A stretch of 36,633 bases of DNA, taken from Actinomycetes bacterium. Lineage in GTDB: Bacteria > Actinomycetota > Actinomycetes > Actinomycetales > Cellulomonadaceae. Every line of letters begins with the position of its first letter. Position 1 is the stretch's first letter. The translations under genes were made by a program, and so were the position numbers. The notes below the pieces were generated by a model, which ran no database searches, was not told the DNA's origin, and was given only the letters and a program-made list of their open reading frames with translations. Shown one piece after another: positions 2,853 through 36,424 of this stretch. Location: positions 1 through 36,633 of the forward strand of contig JAJYSG010000020.1 in the NCBI GenBank assembly GCA_021793675.1. The letters are read 5' to 3'.

Positions 2853-2860
2853 CCACACGA

Positions 2861-2952
2861 CCATCCAGAGCGGCCGAGAGACCCGGCTCGTCGACGCCGC
2901 AGCAACCCCCCTCGGCATGAGGGAGTGGGTGCTTCCGCCGGGAACGATGGAG
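2861..2952 (+). ncRNA. SAM-I (S-box) riboswitch of metF-metE
   Basis: The RNA carries S-box hallmarks in order: P1 5' strand CCATC (2861-2865), the GAGAGAC kink-turn segment, GACGCCGCAGCAACC, a small P3 hairpin with CCCTC/GAGGG, GGTGCTTCCGCCGGGAA, and the P1 3' strand GATGG (2946-2950). SAM-I aptamers bind S-adenosylmethionine and shut down methionine biosynthesis genes. The P1 3' strand overlaps the metF ribosome binding site GGAG (2949-2952), with the ATG at 2958. SAM binding should therefore close P1 over the Shine-Dalgarno sequence and block translation directly. No U-rich terminator is visible, which also favours translational control. Confidence 0.88.
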
Positions 2953-2957
2953 ACGTG

Positions 2958-14654: not shown

Positions 14655-14870
14655 GGGCCTCCCCGCTCTGTCATCCGCCCGGCGAACCGGGCGACCTGAG
14701 AGTTTTGCCGGTCCGCCTGTCGGGGCGCGCCGGCTTGCACCGTCGGTGGGCCCGCATGGGCCGCTTTCCAGAGTCGCCTCGCCGCGGCGGTACGGGTGCC
14801 TGAGAGATTCCCGGGGAGGGTTGCTCCTACGGCGCCCCGCTCGTCGGCGGGATCTCTCCCGCCGCGGCTC
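14655..14870 (-). ncRNA. Tandem glycine riboswitch upstream of gcvP
   Basis: Read on the minus strand, two glycine-aptamer cores appear in a row. The first has GGCGGGAGAGATCCCGCC, GGAGCAACCCTCC and ATCTCTCAGGCAC, ending in GACTCTGGAAAG. The second has CACCGACGGTGCAAGCC, GGCAAAACTCTCAGGTC and GGATGACAGAGCGGGGAGG. The CTCTCAGG core and the GACAGAG/GACTCTGG closing segments, duplicated in tandem, are the signature of the cooperative two-aptamer gcvT-type RNA. Glycine binding normally switches the glycine cleavage operon on. The expression platform lies between about 14655 and the gcvP ribosome binding site. Confidence 0.93.
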
Positions 14871-14895
14871 GAGCAGCGTGTTCAGTTGTGGCGCC

Positions 14896-23478: not shown

Positions 23479-23876
23479 GCCCCCACTCTCGCACCTCCCG
23501 GGGGCCACTCCGTCACGGGGTCCGGGGGGGGCAGGCCGGTGGGCGGCACCGGCCGACGGTCCGCGCAGGGGCAGGCCAGACGGGTGCCCCGCGGCCAGGG
23601 GCGGGCATGGCCCCCCGGGCGCGGGCATGGGACAGCCCGTGGGCCGGACCCCGGGCGGGGCCCTGCCGCGGTGGACGATGTCGCGGCTCCCACGGGCTGC
23701 GGTGGCTGCCGGTACTCGCTCGGGCCGCTCGGGGCCTGGGACGACGGCAGTCCGTCCTGGTTCGACGGGCGGCTAGCGGACAGCCACCTCACGCGTCCTG
23801 GGATGAACCATCTCCGGACCACCTCCTCTCCCGTGTGCCGACGACGCTACGTCGCCCGGGCGGCACCGCCAAGCGT
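23479..23876. other. 398-base gap between the DUF58 cluster and map
   Basis: No gene with coding-like character and a credible start is seen on either strand. The gap contains an 11-bp perfect inverted repeat, CAGCCCGTGGG (23633-23643) and its complement (23689-23699), enclosing other G/C hairpins. This could end the minus-strand DUF58 cluster transcript. The right end (about 23800-23876) is AT-richer and the left end should hold the map promoter. Confidence 0.5.
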
Positions 23877-32048: not shown

Positions 32049-33302
32049 CTACTCGCCGGAACGGGGTTCCGGCCGGGGCGCAGGGTCCCGCAGTCGCCAG
32101 TCCCGCGGCAGGGTGGCCGGCAGCACGTCGTCCACGGTGATGACACCGAGGAGCTGGCCCTCGGAGTCCACTACGGGCAGGGTCGCGAGGTTGTGGTCCG
32201 CCATGAGCAGCGCGAGGTCGGCCAGGTCGGTGTCGGGAGTGACGCGCACCGGGTCCCGGTCGGCGAGCTCGAGCAGCGGGCGGTGGGGGTCCGCCTGCAC
32301 CAGCCGCAGCAGCGGGATGGTCCCGGTCAGGCGCCCGTCCACGTCGATGAGGTGCACCGTGCCGGCCGCCTCGAGCGGCGTGTGCCGCGCGGACCGGACG
32401 ATGCCCAGGGCGGCGTCCGCCTCGAGGTCACCGGGGACGGCGAGGTACTCGATGCTCATGAGTCCGCCTGCGGTCGTCTCGTTGTACGACAGCAGGCTGG
32501 CGACGGCGGCCCGGGTTCCTCCGGGCAGCAGGTCGAGGACGTTGGCGCGCCGCGACGTGGGCAGGTCCATCACCGCGTCGGCCGCGTCGTCGGTGTGCAT
32601 CCGGGTCAGCAGCCGGGCGATCTCGGCGTCCGGGCGGGCGGCGAGGATGCTCCCGCGGTGCTCGTCGAGCTCTTCGTAGACGTCGGCCTCCAGCTCGGGG
32701 TCCTGGTGGACGAGCGCAAGGATCTCCGCCTGCTCGTCGCGCGACGCGTCCTCGAGCAGGTCGGCGAGCTCAGCCGGCCGCAGCGACCTCAGCCGCCCGA
32801 ACGCGGCGCGTACCAGGACGGTCGGCTCGTGCCCGATGAGCGCCTCGAAGGCGCGCCACTCGCGGAACGCGGTCGTCGCCCCCGGGCGCGCGCGACGCGT
32901 CCGGGTGGTGCGCACACCGCCGAGCACCAGGCCGCCCTCGGTGGACGCCAGCAGCAGGTCGTAGGCACGGACGAGCGTGGCGTGCGAGACGTCGACGAGC
33001 CGGTGGCCCAGCACGTCCGCGCGCAGCAGGACCTCCCCGGTGCGACGTTCGAAGGCCCGCACGTCGAGCTGGGCGCTGGTCAGCATCAGCTGCTCCGCCT
33101 GCCAGGCACGGATCTGCGTCGCCGGGACGAACACGTGCCGCCTGCCCACCTCCAGCACGATCCCGATCACCGGCGGCAGCTCCGTGCCGCGTAGCCGCAC
33201 GACGATGTCGGCGAGCCGGCCGAGCACCCGGCCGTCAGGCCCGGCGACGGCACGGTGGACCAGCTGGGACAGCACGAGGTCACCGGCCTGCGGCGCGGTC
33301 AT
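32049..33302 (-). CDS. PRC-barrel, MgtE N-terminal and CBS domain protein without a membrane part
   Basis: A 417-residue soluble protein. A PRC-barrel-like domain (about residues 10-110, with GPDGRVLGRLADIVV and VFVPATQIRAW) precedes an MgtE_N superhelical domain (about 145-270: LRPAELADLLEDASRDEQAEIL split over helices, MHTDDAADAVMDLP, LLSYNETTAGGLMSIEYLAV). A CBS pair follows (about 280-400, ending LPVVDSEGQLLGVITVDDVLP). In MgtE Mg2+ channels these two domains bind Mg2+ in the cytosol and close the pore; here the transmembrane pore domain is missing. The partner is probably the NRAMP-type transporter encoded 63 bases upstream on the same strand. GGAGG is eight bases before the ATG at 33302. 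Confidence 0.9.
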   Translation of the reverse strand: MTAPQAGDLVLSQLVHRAVAGPDGRVLGRLADIVVRLRGTELPPVIGIVLEVGRRHVFVPATQIRAWQAEQLMLTSAQLDVRAFERRTGEVLLRADVLGHRLVDVSHATLVRAYDLLLASTEGGLVLGGVRTTRTRRARPGATTAFREWRAFEALIGHEPTVLVRAAFGRLRSLRPAELADLLEDASRDEQAEILALVHQDPELEADVYEELDEHRGSILAARPDAEIARLLTRMHTDDAADAVMDLPTSRRANVLDLLPGGTRAAVASLLSYNETTAGGLMSIEYLAVPGDLEADAALGIVRSARHTPLEAAGTVHLIDVDGRLTGTIPLLRLVQADPHRPLLELADRDPVRVTPDTDLADLALLMADHNLATLPVVDSEGQLLGVITVDDVLPATLPRDWRLRDPAPRPEPRSGE

Positions 33303-33320
33303 CGTCGACACCTCCCGTGC

Positions 33321-33360
33321 GTCACCCTGCCTGTCGGAGCGACCCGTCAGGCAGGGTGAC
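33321..33360 (-). terminator. Strong hairpin between the NRAMP gene and the MgtE-N/CBS gene
   Basis: GTCACCCTGCCTG (33321-33333) pairs perfectly with 33348-33360, and after one T-T mismatch CGG pairs with CCG around a six-base loop. This makes about 16 bp of stem. It starts five bases after the transporter stop and ends shortly before the ribosome binding site of the next gene. It could terminate, attenuate or stabilise the 3' end of the transporter mRNA. Confidence 0.65.
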
Positions 33361-33365
33361 ACATG

Positions 33366-35024
33366 TCAGGCGCCGGTGGCGATCTGCACCACGCGAACGA
33401 CGACCAGGCTGCAGACCAGCGCGAGATAGACCCACATCAGCGCGAGGCTGACCCGCCGCGCACGGGACATCTCCGGACGCGCCAGCAGCGAGAGCGGCGG
33501 CATCCGCCAGGCGGCCTTCTCCTGCGGGTCGATCATGCGGTCGTCGGCAGCCACGCCGCCGCGGGAGCGCAGCACGTGCTGGCCAGCCACGACGGCGCCC
33601 ACCACCACCGCCAGGCCGGTGCCCGTGGCGAGGATGGCGACCATGGCCTGCCCGCTCATCTGAGGGAAGACCACCGACGCGGTGAGGATCACCGACAGCG
33701 TGACCAACACGGCGATGACGAACCCGGTGAACACGTTGGTGCCGGTCTTGTTGACCCAGGGCCCGAGGACCGCCTTGTCGTTGCACAGCAGCAGCAGGAA
33801 CACCGTGGCCGACGGGAGCAGGACGCCCGCGAGCGTCTGCACACCCTCGGTGAGCAGGCCCAGCGGACTGCCCGGCAGCAGGACGATCGTCGCCGACCCG
33901 GCGAGCAGGAGGCCGAAGACCGCGTAGAAGGCCTTGGCCTCGCGCGGCTTGCGGTGCAGCGAGTGCTTCATCCCGAGGACGTCACCGACGGCGTACGAGG
34001 TCGACAGCCCGACCGCGGCCGCGCCGATGATCGAGGCGTCGATGAGGGCGATCGCGAACAGCACCCCCGCGAGGTGGCCACCGGCGGCGGCCAGGCCGGC
34101 GGCGATGCCTGCGGCATCGGTGAACTGCCCGGCCCCCGACGTGCCGGCGAATGCCGCCGCCGAGAACGACATCATCGCGGCGGCGCCGACCACGACCACG
34201 ACGATGCCGATCCACAGGTCGACCTTCTCGTACCGCATGAACGCCGGGGTGATGCGCTTGTCGATCACGTAGGACTGCTGGAAGAACAGCTGCCACGGCG
34301 CGACAGTGGTGCCCACGATGGCGATGACCAGCAGCATCACCGTGGACAGCTGGGAGCTGCCGCCGGGCAGGCCGGGAACAAGCAGGTCGTGAGCCACCTG
34401 ACCGACGCCCGGGTGGACCATGAACACGATGGGGACCAGCACCAGGGACCCGGCCACCAGCGCGAGCGAGACCTGCTCGAACCTGCGGAACGAGCCGGTC
34501 GACGTCGCGGCAATGACCAACGCCACGGCGATGATCACCCCGGGGACCTTCGGCAGGCCCAGGTAGCCCAGGCCCAGCGTGATACCGATGAACTCCGTGA
34601 CGATGGTCAGCGCGTTGAGGATGAACAGGTCCACGACGCTGAACGCGCCCCAGAACTTGCCGAAGCGCTCGACGATCAGGCGGGCGTGGCCGACACCGGT
34701 GACGGCACCGAGGCGCAGCACCATCTCCTGGTTGACGTAGAGCACCGGCACCAGGAGCAGCAGGGTCCACACCAGCCGGGTGCCGTAGTTCTGGCCCGCC
34801 TGCGTGTAGGTGCCGAAGGCGCCGGCGTCGTTGTCGCCGACCATGACGATGAGGCCGGGGCCGACCACCGCGAGCAGCGTGCGGAGCCGCCGTGACATGC
34901 CGGACCGGCCGGCAGCGCCGGTCTCGCCGAACCGGATGGTCCCCAGCGCGCCTTCGATGTCACCGACGTGGGCGGTGTCGAGCACCGCTGAGGGCGTCGA
35001 GGTGGTGGTGTTCTGCACGGACAT
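33366..35024 (-). CDS. NRAMP-family divalent metal transporter, probably an NRMT-type Mg2+/Mn2+ transporter
   Basis: A 552-residue protein with about eleven transmembrane segments and a long N-terminal cytoplasmic tail. Helix 1 reads GPGLIVMVGDNDAGAFGT, where canonical NRAMPs have DPGN(F/W)AT, so the metal-coordinating Asn is replaced. Helix 6 reads GTTVAPWQLFFQQS instead of the canonical A-x-VMPHN, so the soft-metal-selecting Met is Ala. These replacements are expected for NRAMP-related Mg2+ transporters that prefer hard ions; the precise ion is inferred. The ATG at 35024 follows GGAGG by six bases. The long structured leader and the adjacent Mg2+-sensor-like gene support a role in Mg2+ or Mn2+ homeostasis. 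Confidence 0.85.
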   Translation of the reverse strand: MSVQNTTTSTPSAVLDTAHVGDIEGALGTIRFGETGAAGRSGMSRRLRTLLAVVGPGLIVMVGDNDAGAFGTYTQAGQNYGTRLVWTLLLLVPVLYVNQEMVLRLGAVTGVGHARLIVERFGKFWGAFSVVDLFILNALTIVTEFIGITLGLGYLGLPKVPGVIIAVALVIAATSTGSFRRFEQVSLALVAGSLVLVPIVFMVHPGVGQVAHDLLVPGLPGGSSQLSTVMLLVIAIVGTTVAPWQLFFQQSYVIDKRITPAFMRYEKVDLWIGIVVVVVGAAAMMSFSAAAFAGTSGAGQFTDAAGIAAGLAAAGGHLAGVLFAIALIDASIIGAAAVGLSTSYAVGDVLGMKHSLHRKPREAKAFYAVFGLLLAGSATIVLLPGSPLGLLTEGVQTLAGVLLPSATVFLLLLCNDKAVLGPWVNKTGTNVFTGFVIAVLVTLSVILTASVVFPQMSGQAMVAILATGTGLAVVVGAVVAGQHVLRSRGGVAADDRMIDPQEKAAWRMPPLSLLARPEMSRARRVSLALMWVYLALVCSLVVVRVVQIATGA

Positions 35025-35036
35025 GGCAAGCCTCCG

Positions 35037-35056
35037 TCCTGCCTGACAGGCAAGGA
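35037..35056 (-). promoter_or_regulatory. Palindrome next to the transporter ribosome binding site
   Basis: TGCCTG-A-CAGGCA, extended by TCC/GGA with one unpaired base, lies directly before GGAGG of the transporter gene. As RNA it forms a hairpin whose 3' side touches the ribosome binding site; as DNA it may be an operator. The 10-mer TGACAGGCAA in it recurs at 35269-35278. Confidence 0.5.
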
Positions 35057-35060
35057 TCGG

Positions 35061-35130
35061 GTGACGCGTGCGGCAGTCCTGAGAGCCTTCGGCTCACCAG
35101 GTCGGTCGAGCGTGCGTCAGCACGCGTCAC
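35061..35130 (-). ncRNA. Structured attenuator-like leader of the NRAMP transporter
   Basis: On the minus strand GTGACGCGTG (35130 to 35121) is exactly complementary to CACGCGTCAC (35070 to 35061). This long-range stem encloses a GAA-capped hairpin (35101 to 35078: CCTG, GAGCC, GAA, GGCTC, CAGG). The 5' strand can instead form a local 6-bp hairpin, GCGTGC-TGAC-GCACGC (35125 to 35110). The two structures exclude each other. The 5' strand is also the end of a short ORF. No known riboswitch consensus (M-box, yybP-ykoY) was recognised. Confidence 0.5.
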
Positions 35131-35182
35131 GGACGGACGAGGAGCGCGTCATGATCGGACTATGACCAGGTGCGGTGTCCAT
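35117..35182 (-). CDS. Candidate 21-residue leader peptide upstream of the transporter
   Basis: The ATG at 35182 is preceded by GGAGGAGG (35199 to 35192), nine bases away. This is one of the strongest ribosome binding sites in the window, although no large gene uses it. The peptide starts MDTAPGHSPIMTRSSS and ends VRDAC before a TGA at 35119-35117. Its last codons are the 5' strand of the leader stems, and the stop codon lies in the loop of the local hairpin. A ribosome reaching the stop would prevent the long-range stem, the classic layout of a leader-peptide attenuator. A 10-codon GTG ORF overlaps in another frame but has poorer spacing. There is no direct evidence of translation. Confidence 0.5.
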   Translation of the reverse strand: MDTAPGHSPIMTRSSSVRDAC

Positions 35183-35240
35183 GAGCGCTCACCTCCTCCG
35201 TCGGGGGCCCGAAGGCCGCGCGCGGACCACTGGCCCGCAA

Positions 35241-35278
35241 CCGCCCGCCAGCATGACACGTCCTCCCATGACAGGCAA
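35241..35278 (-). promoter_or_regulatory. Possible promoter of the transporter leader
   Basis: On the minus strand TTGCCT (35278 to 35273), 17 bases, then CATGCT form a weak -35/-10 pair upstream of the leader-peptide ORF. A start near 35245 would give a leader of about 220 bases. A second -10-like CATAGT (35164 to 35159) lies inside the leader ORF and would give a shorter transcript without it. Confidence 0.3.
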
Positions 35279-35314
35279 CCCAGGCGCGCCTCGCCCGCGG
35301 GCCAGGACGCGGTG

Positions 35315-36424
35315 TCAGCCTTGCGCCGGGGCGATCATCGTCGCGTAGTCCTGCGCATTGGCCGCCTTCAACGTCCCGGGGTCGGTGCCGAGGAACGACG
35401 AAGACAGCCCGAAGACCAGCCAGCGGGTGCCGTAACGGAGGAACGAGACCCCTCCGACCATGGGGCCGTTGGGCGTCCCGTAGAGCACCGCGTACTCCGC
35501 GTACTCGTCGGCCCGGTAGGGCGCGGCCATGCTCGCGAAGGCGGTGGCCAGCTGCGGGCGGCCAACCCCGACCATGTCGACGTGCAGCACGGTCAGCCGG
35601 GCCATCGGCGCGGGGTCGAGGCGGCTGGCCAGCGCGGCGGCGGTGCTCGCGTCGCCGATCACGGCAGTGGTCGTGGGGTCGTCCTGCGGATCGACGACGC
35701 TCCACGTCATCGCGCGCAGCTGGGCGGTGATCTGAGCGGCCCGCTGCCCGAGGTCGAGCGTGCGGTAGTACGGCGTGGACGACGGGAGCCATGTGTACGG
35801 ACCCATGGCGCCCATGCGTGCCAGCTGAGCGGCGAAGTCGTAGCCGTCGACCATCGACGTGGTCGCGAACGCGGTCGCGGCACCGGCGGCGTCGCCGGCC
35901 GCCAGCCGCTGGGCGAGGAACGCCACGGCGTCCTGCGGCGTGGCGAACGTGCCCTCGGCGGCCGCGAACGTGGCAGCGCCGCCAGCCTCCGACGTGCTCG
36001 TGGCGGTGGGCACCGGCGTGGACGCCGCCCTGGCCGAGGCCGCCCCCTCGCCCGCGGGCTGGGGCCGCAGCCAGGAGCCCGCGGCGACGAGGACGGCCAC
36101 CGCCGCCACTGCCCAGGGCACCCAGCCGGACGTGCCATGCCTCGCCGTGGCCGTCCCGCCCACGGCCCCAGGCGGCGTGGCCACGGGCGATGCCCCGCCG
36201 GCGGCCTGTGGCGTGGCGATGACGGGCACCGCCTCGACCGTGGCCTGCGGCACGCCGCCCGCCGCCTGGATCCAGGCACGCAGCTCCGGGTAGGCCGCCG
36301 GATGGCTCGCGACCAGCGCCCGCAGCTCAGGGTGCGCGCCGGCGATCTGCGCCAGCTCCGCCGCCGTCACGTCCGGCTCCGCGAGCCGGCGCGCGGCCTG
36401 CTCCAACGACGACAGGTCAGCCAC
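35315..36424 (-). CDS. LRV-type N-terminal segment, single-pass membrane protein of unknown function
   Basis: A 369-residue protein. Residues 1-55 (SLEQAARRLAEPDVTAAEL, then GAHPELRALVASHPAAYPEL) form a short helical, leucine-rich-variant-like module found in actinobacterial membrane proteins. A Pro/Ala/Thr-rich linker is followed by one transmembrane helix (about 101-118, WVPWAVAAVAVLVAAGSWL). The extracytoplasmic part contains two Ala-rich regions and a C-terminal domain with TPQDAVAFLAQRLAAGD and GGVSFLRYGTRWLVFG, possibly a small NTF2-like fold. Inside-to-outside topology is inferred. The GTG at 36424 is chosen because GAGAGGA is seven bases upstream; a GTG at 36442 is the alternative. 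No function is assigned. Confidence 0.75.
   Translation of the reverse strand: MADLSSLEQAARRLAEPDVTAAELAQIAGAHPELRALVASHPAAYPELRAWIQAAGGVPQATVEAVPVIATPQAAGGASPVATPPGAVGGTATARHGTSGWVPWAVAAVAVLVAAGSWLRPQPAGEGAASARAASTPVPTATSTSEAGGAATFAAAEGTFATPQDAVAFLAQRLAAGDAAGAATAFATTSMVDGYDFAAQLARMGAMGPYTWLPSSTPYYRTLDLGQRAAQITAQLRAMTWSVVDPQDDPTTTAVIGDASTAAALASRLDPAPMARLTVLHVDMVGVGRPQLATAFASMAAPYRADEYAEYAVLYGTPNGPMVGGVSFLRYGTRWLVFGLSSSFLGTDPGTLKAANAQDYATMIAPAQG

What the first reader, a model, noticed from the sequence alone, without database searches (positions are those of the whole stretch)
35037..35278. Leader peptide plus mutually exclusive RNA stems before an NRAMP-type transporter: candidate attenuator or new metal-responsive RNA
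Seen in the sequence: a 21-codon ORF (35182 to 35117) with a perfect GGAGGAGG ribosome binding site; a 10-bp perfect long-range stem (35130-35121 with 35070-35061) whose 5' arm is the end of that ORF; a competing local hairpin with the ORF stop codon in its loop; a GAA-capped middle hairpin; and a last hairpin touching the transporter ribosome binding site. Known: leader-peptide and riboswitch control of Mg2+ transporter genes (mgtL/mgtA, M-box) exists in other bacteria. Inference: translation of the short ORF or direct ion binding sets transporter expression. The sequence does not resemble the M-box or yybP-ykoY consensus I know.
Basis: partly seen in the sequence, partly recalled or inferred. 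Interest (0 to 1): 0.72.

Follow-up and report, generated by a model that had tools for sequence, protein, structure and literature searches.

The report
Riboswitch-less leader peptide for magnesium transporter
A short, conserved leader gene sits just before a bacterial magnesium-transporter gene; in many relatives it lies behind a magnesium riboswitch, but here the riboswitch is missing and the leader gene and its RNA stem remain, which suggests that translating the leader may itself sense magnesium.

Summary
The described ORF, ribosome-binding site and stems are real; the ORF and the long stem are conserved. The downstream gene is an NRMT-type Mg2+ transporter (best PDB match 7qia, EleNRMT), followed by a MgtE_N-CBS gene. 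In relatives the same kind of ORF follows an M-box Mg2+ riboswitch: 46 of 48 full-M-box rows of my transporter tree and 29 of 30 loci fetched by M-box. It resembles uORF2/Rv1805A, described in mycobacteria in 2026 as genus-specific, role unknown (PMC12810186). No M-box was found in the window or its six clade-mates (L007: only 147 nt held before the ORF), yet all seven keep the ORF; the same recurs in Streptomyces. The ORF's first half is constrained as peptide (pN/pS 0.41) and nearly fixes the Ser codon AGT (107 of 120; 0 of 105 in the second half); the second half is constrained as RNA (stems P0, P1). Best reading: a cis-acting, mgtL-like Mg2+ leader-peptide attenuator that outlived its riboswitch. 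Sensing and its direction are inferred. Predicted release of the transporter's ribosome site failed in Streptomyces.

The parts
35250..35278 (-). Promoter-like pair TTGCCT (35278-35273) and CATGCT (35255-35250), 17 nt apart; would leave about 60 nt of leader before the uORF, too little for an M-box
   Evidence: read by eye by analogy with TTGACT...CATCCT in L003/L004; the consensus scan found no promoter, so weak
35192..35199 (-). Ribosome-binding site GGAGGAGG of the uORF
   Evidence: SD at the same place in relatives
35117..35182 (-). Leader uORF, 21 codons, MDTAPGHSPIMTRSSSVRDAC*
   Evidence: same type in relatives
35156..35170 (-). Conserved N-terminal motif PGHSP (CCT GGT CAT AGT CCG) with the conserved Ser codon AGT
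35132..35147 (-). P0 3' arm: uORF codons complementary to the uORF's own RBS
   Evidence: MFE; conserved in 34 Streptomycetaceae-type leaders, not above shuffles in the 4 Cellulomonas leaders
35120..35130 (-). P1 5' arm, the last codons of the uORF
   Evidence: compensated between clades
35061..35071 (-). P1 3' arm
35110..35125 (-). Local hairpin with the uORF stop in its loop
   Evidence: present but not formed in L003/L004 (by eye)
35078..35101 (-). GAA-capped hairpin inside P1
   Evidence: replaced by another hairpin in L003 (by eye)
35034..35060 (-). P3, hairpin at the transporter RBS (SD GGAGG 35035-35031)
   Evidence: similar hairpins by eye in L003, L004, L006 and in Streptomyces
33366..35024 (-). 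NRMT-type NRAMP gene, 552 aa (Mg2+ transporter clade)
   Evidence: Pfam Nramp 2.5e-77; best PDB hit 7qia 2.7e-52, which is EleNRMT
32049..33362 (-). MgtE_N-CBS gene directly after the transporter

Best explanation
A cis-acting leader-peptide attenuator of an NRMT-type Mg2+ transporter operon: the uORF part of an actinobacterial 'M-box riboswitch + uORF' module, kept in a lineage without the riboswitch. Shown by comparison: the uORF is conserved; in Streptomycetaceae its first half is constrained as peptide and in its AGT Ser codon, and its second half is constrained as RNA, forming P0 with its own RBS and P1 with the spacer before the transporter; P1 is also kept in the window's clade, so that a ribosome at the stop codon must open P1. 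Inferred: the leader acts in cis; what is sensed is ribosome progress over the Pro/Gly/His-or-Asp/Ser-AGT/Pro motif, which Mg2+ changes as it does for MgtL; the outcome is set by whether the C-rich spacer is folded into P1 or exposed to Rho. Preferred direction (inferred, about 55:45): early drop-off at low Mg2+ lets P1 form and the transporter is made; full translation keeps P1 open and favours termination. In M-box relatives this would be a second checkpoint after the riboswitch.
For: uORF with SD called before the transporter in 59 of 101 tree rows, by a pattern drawn from the first peptides seen. In 34 Streptomycetaceae-type ORFs start, motif and stop stay in one frame although codons are gained or lost; N part pN/pS 0.41, C part 1.14; Ser codon AGT 107 of 120 in the N part, 0 of 105 in the C part. 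Upper P1: 282 of 305 cells paired, 0 of 1000 arm swaps as good (best swap 0.921, observed 0.925); lower P1: 410 of 543, also 0 of 1000. Between clades P1 pair 2 changes from G-C to U-A (3 rows; U-G in a fourth) and pair 3 from C-G to G-C (4 rows). P0 mean -24.2 kcal/mol, against -16.5 with the coding part shuffled, and 29 of 2000 row swaps as good. Mg2+ link: M-box upstream in relatives, NRMT-type protein, known M-box control of NRMT genes (PMC4072509, passages). Retention without M-box: the window's clade, 7 of 7 with uORF, and Streptomyces-part rows L014, L017, L020, L084, L118, L011, L102; pure output of a lost riboswitch would not be expected to persist. Precedents: MgtL drop-off at low Mg2+ (PMC11282234, passages); M-box-uORF with Rho-dependent termination in M. 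tuberculosis (PMC12810186, parts 1-4 of 6). The spacer has more C than G in 34 of 34 Streptomycetaceae-type leaders and in the window (0.37 against 0.32).
Against: No expression, TSS or Mg2+ data for this organism. The window's motif (D2, P5, P9) is much less acidic than EPDP of MgtL. Masking the uORF end did not free the transporter SD in Streptomyces (rises in 17 of 34, mean 0.238 to 0.257); small rise in 4 of 4 Cellulomonas (0.255 to 0.330). P0 is not above shuffles in the 4 Cellulomonas leaders. RNAalifold on the whole 34-row alignment found no long stem; P1 was counted on a hand-justified alignment, and the arms outside Streptomycetaceae were placed by hand. Rows are related, so swap counts are not probabilities. 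L106 keeps a full M-box but has lost the uORF's SD and N-terminal motif; L152 has an M-box and no start codon; L074 is unclear. Twenty more distant transporter copies (34-58% identity) have neither M-box nor called uORF in the flank held, though some may lie behind a longer operon (G211 has an M-box about 3 kb upstream of its copy). No terminator was predicted; Rho sites were not tested.
Confidence: 0.6

Rival explanations
1. Translational relay without sensing: the uORF only couples ribosome loading to Rho exclusion or P1 opening; in M-box relatives the riboswitch does all the sensing, and in the window the uORF gives constitutive read-through or reports general translation.
For: In M. tuberculosis the M-box gates uORF2 translation and Rho acts in the leader (PMC12810186). 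A possible anti-SD CTCCTTGCCG lies between M-box and uORF in several Streptomyces leaders (by eye). L106 loses the N-terminal motif yet keeps M-box and P1 arm.
Against: A relay does not need a conserved peptide motif with one Ser codon, nor explain its retention after repeated M-box loss.
Confidence: 0.25
2. The uORF encodes a trans-acting small protein (as proposed for Rv1805A: regulator or subunit of the transport system), and P0/P1 are incidental.
For: N part under peptide-level constraint; PMC12810186 reports a homologue outside the M-box context and discusses a trans role.
Against: Mostly 13-27 residues (L007 reads on to 70), C part free at peptide level (pN/pS 1.14) but fitting RNA pairing. 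In the cases seen it lies in a leader, but I searched only there. No visible biofilm effect in PMC12810186.
Confidence: 0.08
3. A new ion-binding riboswitch in the window leader.
For: Stable leader fold (z -3.06).
Against: No Rfam match; only about 60 nt before the uORF if the promoter-like pair is used; the middle hairpins are not conserved (by eye); the conserved pairs are those tied to the ORF.
Confidence: 0.04
4. Decayed leftover: after M-box loss the uORF and stems persist by recent common descent without function.
For: The transporter is rare in the genus (2 of 36 same-genus genomes at E 1e-80, the window's own included) and may have moved horizontally.
Against: Across L001/L003/L004/L006 the ORF keeps its frame and start while codons change, with a one-codon length difference between L001 and L003/L004, and P1 stays paired through substitutions.
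Confidence: 0.03

Closest known systems
M-box - uORF2 (Rv1805A) leader of Mycobacterium tuberculosis pe20 (PMC12810186)
   Same: Short ORF with strong SD in the leader of a Mg2+-linked operon, conserved N-terminus with Pro; M-box loci fetched here from genomes that look mycobacterial carry MSSSDSP/MSPGDSP ORFs of the same type
   Different: The window has no M-box; the gene is an NRMT transporter; the paper calls the peptide mycobacteria-specific, whereas the type is found here in records named Streptomyces, Kitasatospora, Cellulomonas, Leifsonia, Propionibacteriaceae and others.
MgtL leader peptide of mgtA (Enterobacteriaceae)
   Same: Short translated leader before a Mg2+ transporter gene, destabilising early motif, RNA conformation set by leader translation, Rho (PMC11282234, passages)
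   Different: No sequence similarity sought or claimed; window motif PGHSP rather than EPDP; a large stem whose 5' arm is the ORF end; different transporter family; drop-off and Rho unproven here
M-box riboswitch RF00380 before NRMT genes (PMC4072509, Clostridium; passages)
   Same: Same transporter clade and ligand logic; M-box present in many relatives of this locus
   Different: Aptamer absent in the window; no intrinsic terminator found
B12 riboswitch plus uORF in M. tuberculosis (PMC11260477, search listing only)
   Same: Riboswitch acting with uORF translation
   Different: Other ligand and genes; riboswitch present

Membership tests
M-box riboswitch (RF00380) | Covariance-model match in the leader | tested here: not met
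   No match in the window or L001, none in the window's 61.9%-complete genome; nine relatives score 115.7-144.9 bits
M-box-associated uORF2 / Rv1805A type | Short ORF with strong SD and conserved N-terminus containing Pro, in the leader of a Mg2+ operon | tested here: met
   Rv1805A letters not seen
M-box-associated uORF2 / Rv1805A type | M-box directly upstream | tested here: not met
MgtL-type Mg2+ leader peptides | Short leader ORF before a Mg2+ transporter gene | tested here: met
   transport itself untested
MgtL-type Mg2+ leader peptides | Early destabilising acid/Pro motif (EPDP) | tested here: inconclusive
   window has D2, P5, P9; more acidic forms in relatives; proteobacterial test post hoc
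MgtL-type Mg2+ leader peptides | Leader 3' end takes part in RNA pairing that translation would open | tested here: met
   P1, P0 in Streptomycetaceae; an alternative partner of P1 was not established
MgtL-type Mg2+ leader peptides | Mg2+-dependent drop-off and Rho-dependent termination | not testable with these tools
   needs experiments
NRMT (Mg2+ clade of SLC11/NRAMP) | DxxG-TxxA/T site instead of DxxN-A/CxxM | tested here: inconclusive
   window D-A-G-A and T-T-V-A; Met absent, Gly replaced by Ala; EleNRMT 7qia by far the best PDB match (181 against 70 bits for the next); signature from PMC8806188

The most novel reading that the evidence does not exclude
A widespread Mg2+-sensing leader-peptide class, in which the ribosome reading a short motif with a fixed Ser codon (AGT) is the sensor, controls NRMT operons across Actinomycetota and has acid/Pro-rich counterparts before proteobacterial NRMT genes; it works in series behind the M-box in most actinobacteria that have it and has repeatedly outlived the loss of the riboswitch, as in the window. 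Rv1805A would then be a cis leader peptide and not a small effector protein.
Probability: 0.35. Interest if true: 0.8.

Novelty: new variant of a known kind. Interest (0 to 1): 0.62.

Why it matters
If true, a peptide recently described as mycobacteria-specific and of unknown role is a widespread actinobacterial cis leader, and natural variants that have lost the riboswitch (or, in L106, the uORF motif) offer a ready-made dissection of two stacked Mg2+ controls. The fixed AGT Ser codon among mostly GC-ending codons is a concrete, testable oddity. It would extend Mg2+ sensing by the translating ribosome from MgtL to another phylum and another transporter family.

Tried and rejected
Rfam at E 10 on 34700-35900 gave only two chance-level matches. 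The promoter/terminator scan found nothing. Release of the transporter SD by a ribosome at the uORF stop: rejected for Streptomyces as a thermodynamic prediction (17 of 34). RNAalifold on the whole alignment: no long stem. P0 in Cellulomonas: not above shuffles. The short hairpin around CAYAGT was compared only by eye and not tested. Proteobacterial acid/Pro ORFs: 14 of 29 loci with score 3 or more forward against 3 of 29 on the reverse strand; 17 of 50 against 3 of 37 ORFs, Fisher p 0.005; score and cut-off were chosen after seeing the peptides and rows are related, so this is a lead only. One search held two wrong rows (L101, L102), corrected and recounted; one search took the first of two possible 3' arms for L034, and the AGT count includes the doubtful ORF of L074. 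For the tree I left out four near-duplicates (L112, L116, L111, L117) and 20 loci of 60% identity or less, but kept six such loci that have an M-box. The 34-row set is a hand-picked list of Streptomycetaceae-type leaders without those four duplicates; L109 (masked bases), L106 (uORF start lost) and L034 and L012 (other families) are not in it.

Papers: PMC12810186 parts 1-4 of 6 read; PMC11109978, PMC8806188, PMC4072509 and PMC11282234 passages only; PMC11260477 seen in the search listing only. That I found no paper describing this uORF outside mycobacteria rests on the searches in an open-access library.

Full report
What is there. The minus strand carries, in order, a promoter-like pair (weak, by eye), an RBS GGAGGAGG, a 21-codon ORF, an 11-bp long-range stem P1 whose 5' arm is the last codons of the ORF, a hairpin P3 at the next RBS, and an operon-like pair of an NRAMP-family gene and a MgtE_N-CBS gene. 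The stem is unlikely by chance (3 of 5000 shuffles). The NRAMP protein is of the Mg2+-transporting NRMT type: the best solved relative is 7qia, which is EleNRMT, and the binding-site letters are D-A-G-A and T-T-V-A, close to the NRMT signature DxxG-TxxA/T (PMC8806188 passages).

Conservation. In all 125 loci were compared; 101 went into a transporter tree. The 29-row proteobacterial clade has another kind (below), and 20 more distant copies outside the tree (34-58% identity) have no called uORF and no M-box in the flank held.

Link to the M-box. Rfam finds an M-box riboswitch before this ORF in 9 of the first 20 loci scanned; an nhmmer model from those hits finds it within the held upstream flank (at most 2.5 kb) in 55 of 125 loci, three of them (L011, L061, L102) only as a 3' remnant. 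In the tree 48 rows have a full M-box; the ORF was called in 43, and is readable in L016 and L088 and L109, thus 46 of 48; L106 has lost its SD and N-terminal motif and L074 is unclear. Searching the other way, RF00380 occurs in 25 of 394 Actinomycetes genomes and was not found in the window's own, 61.9% complete, genome. Of 46 matches, 30 loci were fetched, mostly mycobacteria-like and at least one (L133) the same place as a transporter locus (L087). A short SD-preceded ORF of this kind, judged by eye, follows the M-box in 28 by script and in L139 (masked bases) by reading, thus 29 of 30; L152 lacks a start codon. This fits uORF2/Rv1805A of M. tuberculosis, reported as mycobacteria-specific, with a conserved Pro7, translated, gated by the M-box and combined with Rho (PMC12810186).

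Loss of the riboswitch. The window's clade (support 91, SH-aLRT) has 7 rows; no M-box was found in any, and all have the ORF. For L007 only 147 nt before the ORF are held; for the others 698-2281 nt. L014, L017, L020, L084 and L118 in the Streptomyces part of the tree were scored as without M-box (in L017 a 3' end is readable), and L011, L102 and, in another part, L061 keep only a remnant, all with the ORF; cmscan finds no match in these eight, nor in L026 and L035. The M-box label needs 13 changes on the tree, at least 7 by the starred branches. So the ORF outlives the riboswitch, which argues that it is more than the riboswitch's output. L106 is the opposite case.

Two kinds of constraint in one ORF. 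In 34 Streptomycetaceae-type ORFs (23-26 residues) start, motif and stop stay in one frame. The N part has pN/pS 0.41, the C part 1.14. Ser is AGT in 107 of 120 cases in the N part and in 0 of 105 in the C part; over the called uORFs it is 158 of 228 in the first 15 codons against 4 of 149 later, and 5 of 94 in the first 20 codons of the transporter genes. Other codons in the motif are mostly GC-ending (CCG 34 of 34, GGC 32 of 34), so a general preference for AT-ending early codons does not explain it. The C part pairs with the uORF's own RBS (P0: mean -24.2 against -16.5 kcal/mol shuffled, 29 of 2000 row swaps as good) and its last codons with the spacer (P1: 282 of 305 upper cells, 410 of 543 lower cells; partners slid by 1-3 columns give 26-62% and 42-54%). 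Between Cellulomonas and Streptomyces two neighbouring P1 pairs change on both sides (arms placed by hand).

How it may work. A ribosome at the uORF stop must open P1; a ribosome lost early, or none, lets P1 form. Masking the uORF end in silico did not free the transporter RBS in Streptomyces (17 of 34), so the output is more likely transcription termination in the C-rich spacer (C above G in 34 of 34) than SD release. MgtL gives the precedent for Mg2+-dependent drop-off (PMC11282234 passages). I prefer the same direction here, but only slightly; the relay model with opposite direction remains. Rho, drop-off and Mg2+ response are inference.

Beyond actinobacteria. The proteobacterial clade of the tree (29 rows, no M-box found) often has an acid/Pro-rich short ORF upstream, e.g. 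MPDPEPCSCP, MNDGPSRPAD, MPDSDSYPLC. The count (14 of 29 against 3 of 29 on the reverse strand) is post hoc and a lead only; 15 of 29 do not reach the score.

Verdict. The finding is real. It is a new variant of a known kind: a Mg2+ leader uORF of the M-box-uORF type that stands without its riboswitch.

Noticed in passing
window 14778-14871 (-), 2858-2953 (+), 23627-23836 (-): Rfam matches: glycine riboswitch, SAM riboswitch and the actinobacterial sRNA Ms_IGR-5.
   Followed up: no
L106, about 150-370 nt upstream of the transporter: Natural variant: full M-box kept, uORF RBS and N-terminal motif deleted, uORF 3' end and P1 arm kept, with an in-frame GTG.
   Followed up: partly
L087, L088; L051, L072, L078: A second small ORF of about 43-59 codons lies between leader uORF and transporter in mycobacteria-like and Paraburkholderia/Caballeronia loci.
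   Followed up: no
promoter regions of L007, L011, L014, L020, L042, L084, L112: Palindrome-like TTGCG...CGCAA or TTGCGCAA sequences lie upstream of uORF and M-box leaders, a possible DNA operator (by eye).
   Followed up: no
L094, L095: An ArsR-like reading frame (by eye, unsearched) lies directly upstream of more distant NRAMP copies.
   Followed up: no
L047 (1185-1361, 2011-2184); L015: Two M-boxes in one locus.
   Followed up: no
uORFs of the actinobacterial loci: Ser codon AGT is nearly fixed in the N-terminal motif; no pairing partner or decoding reason was found.
   Followed up: partly
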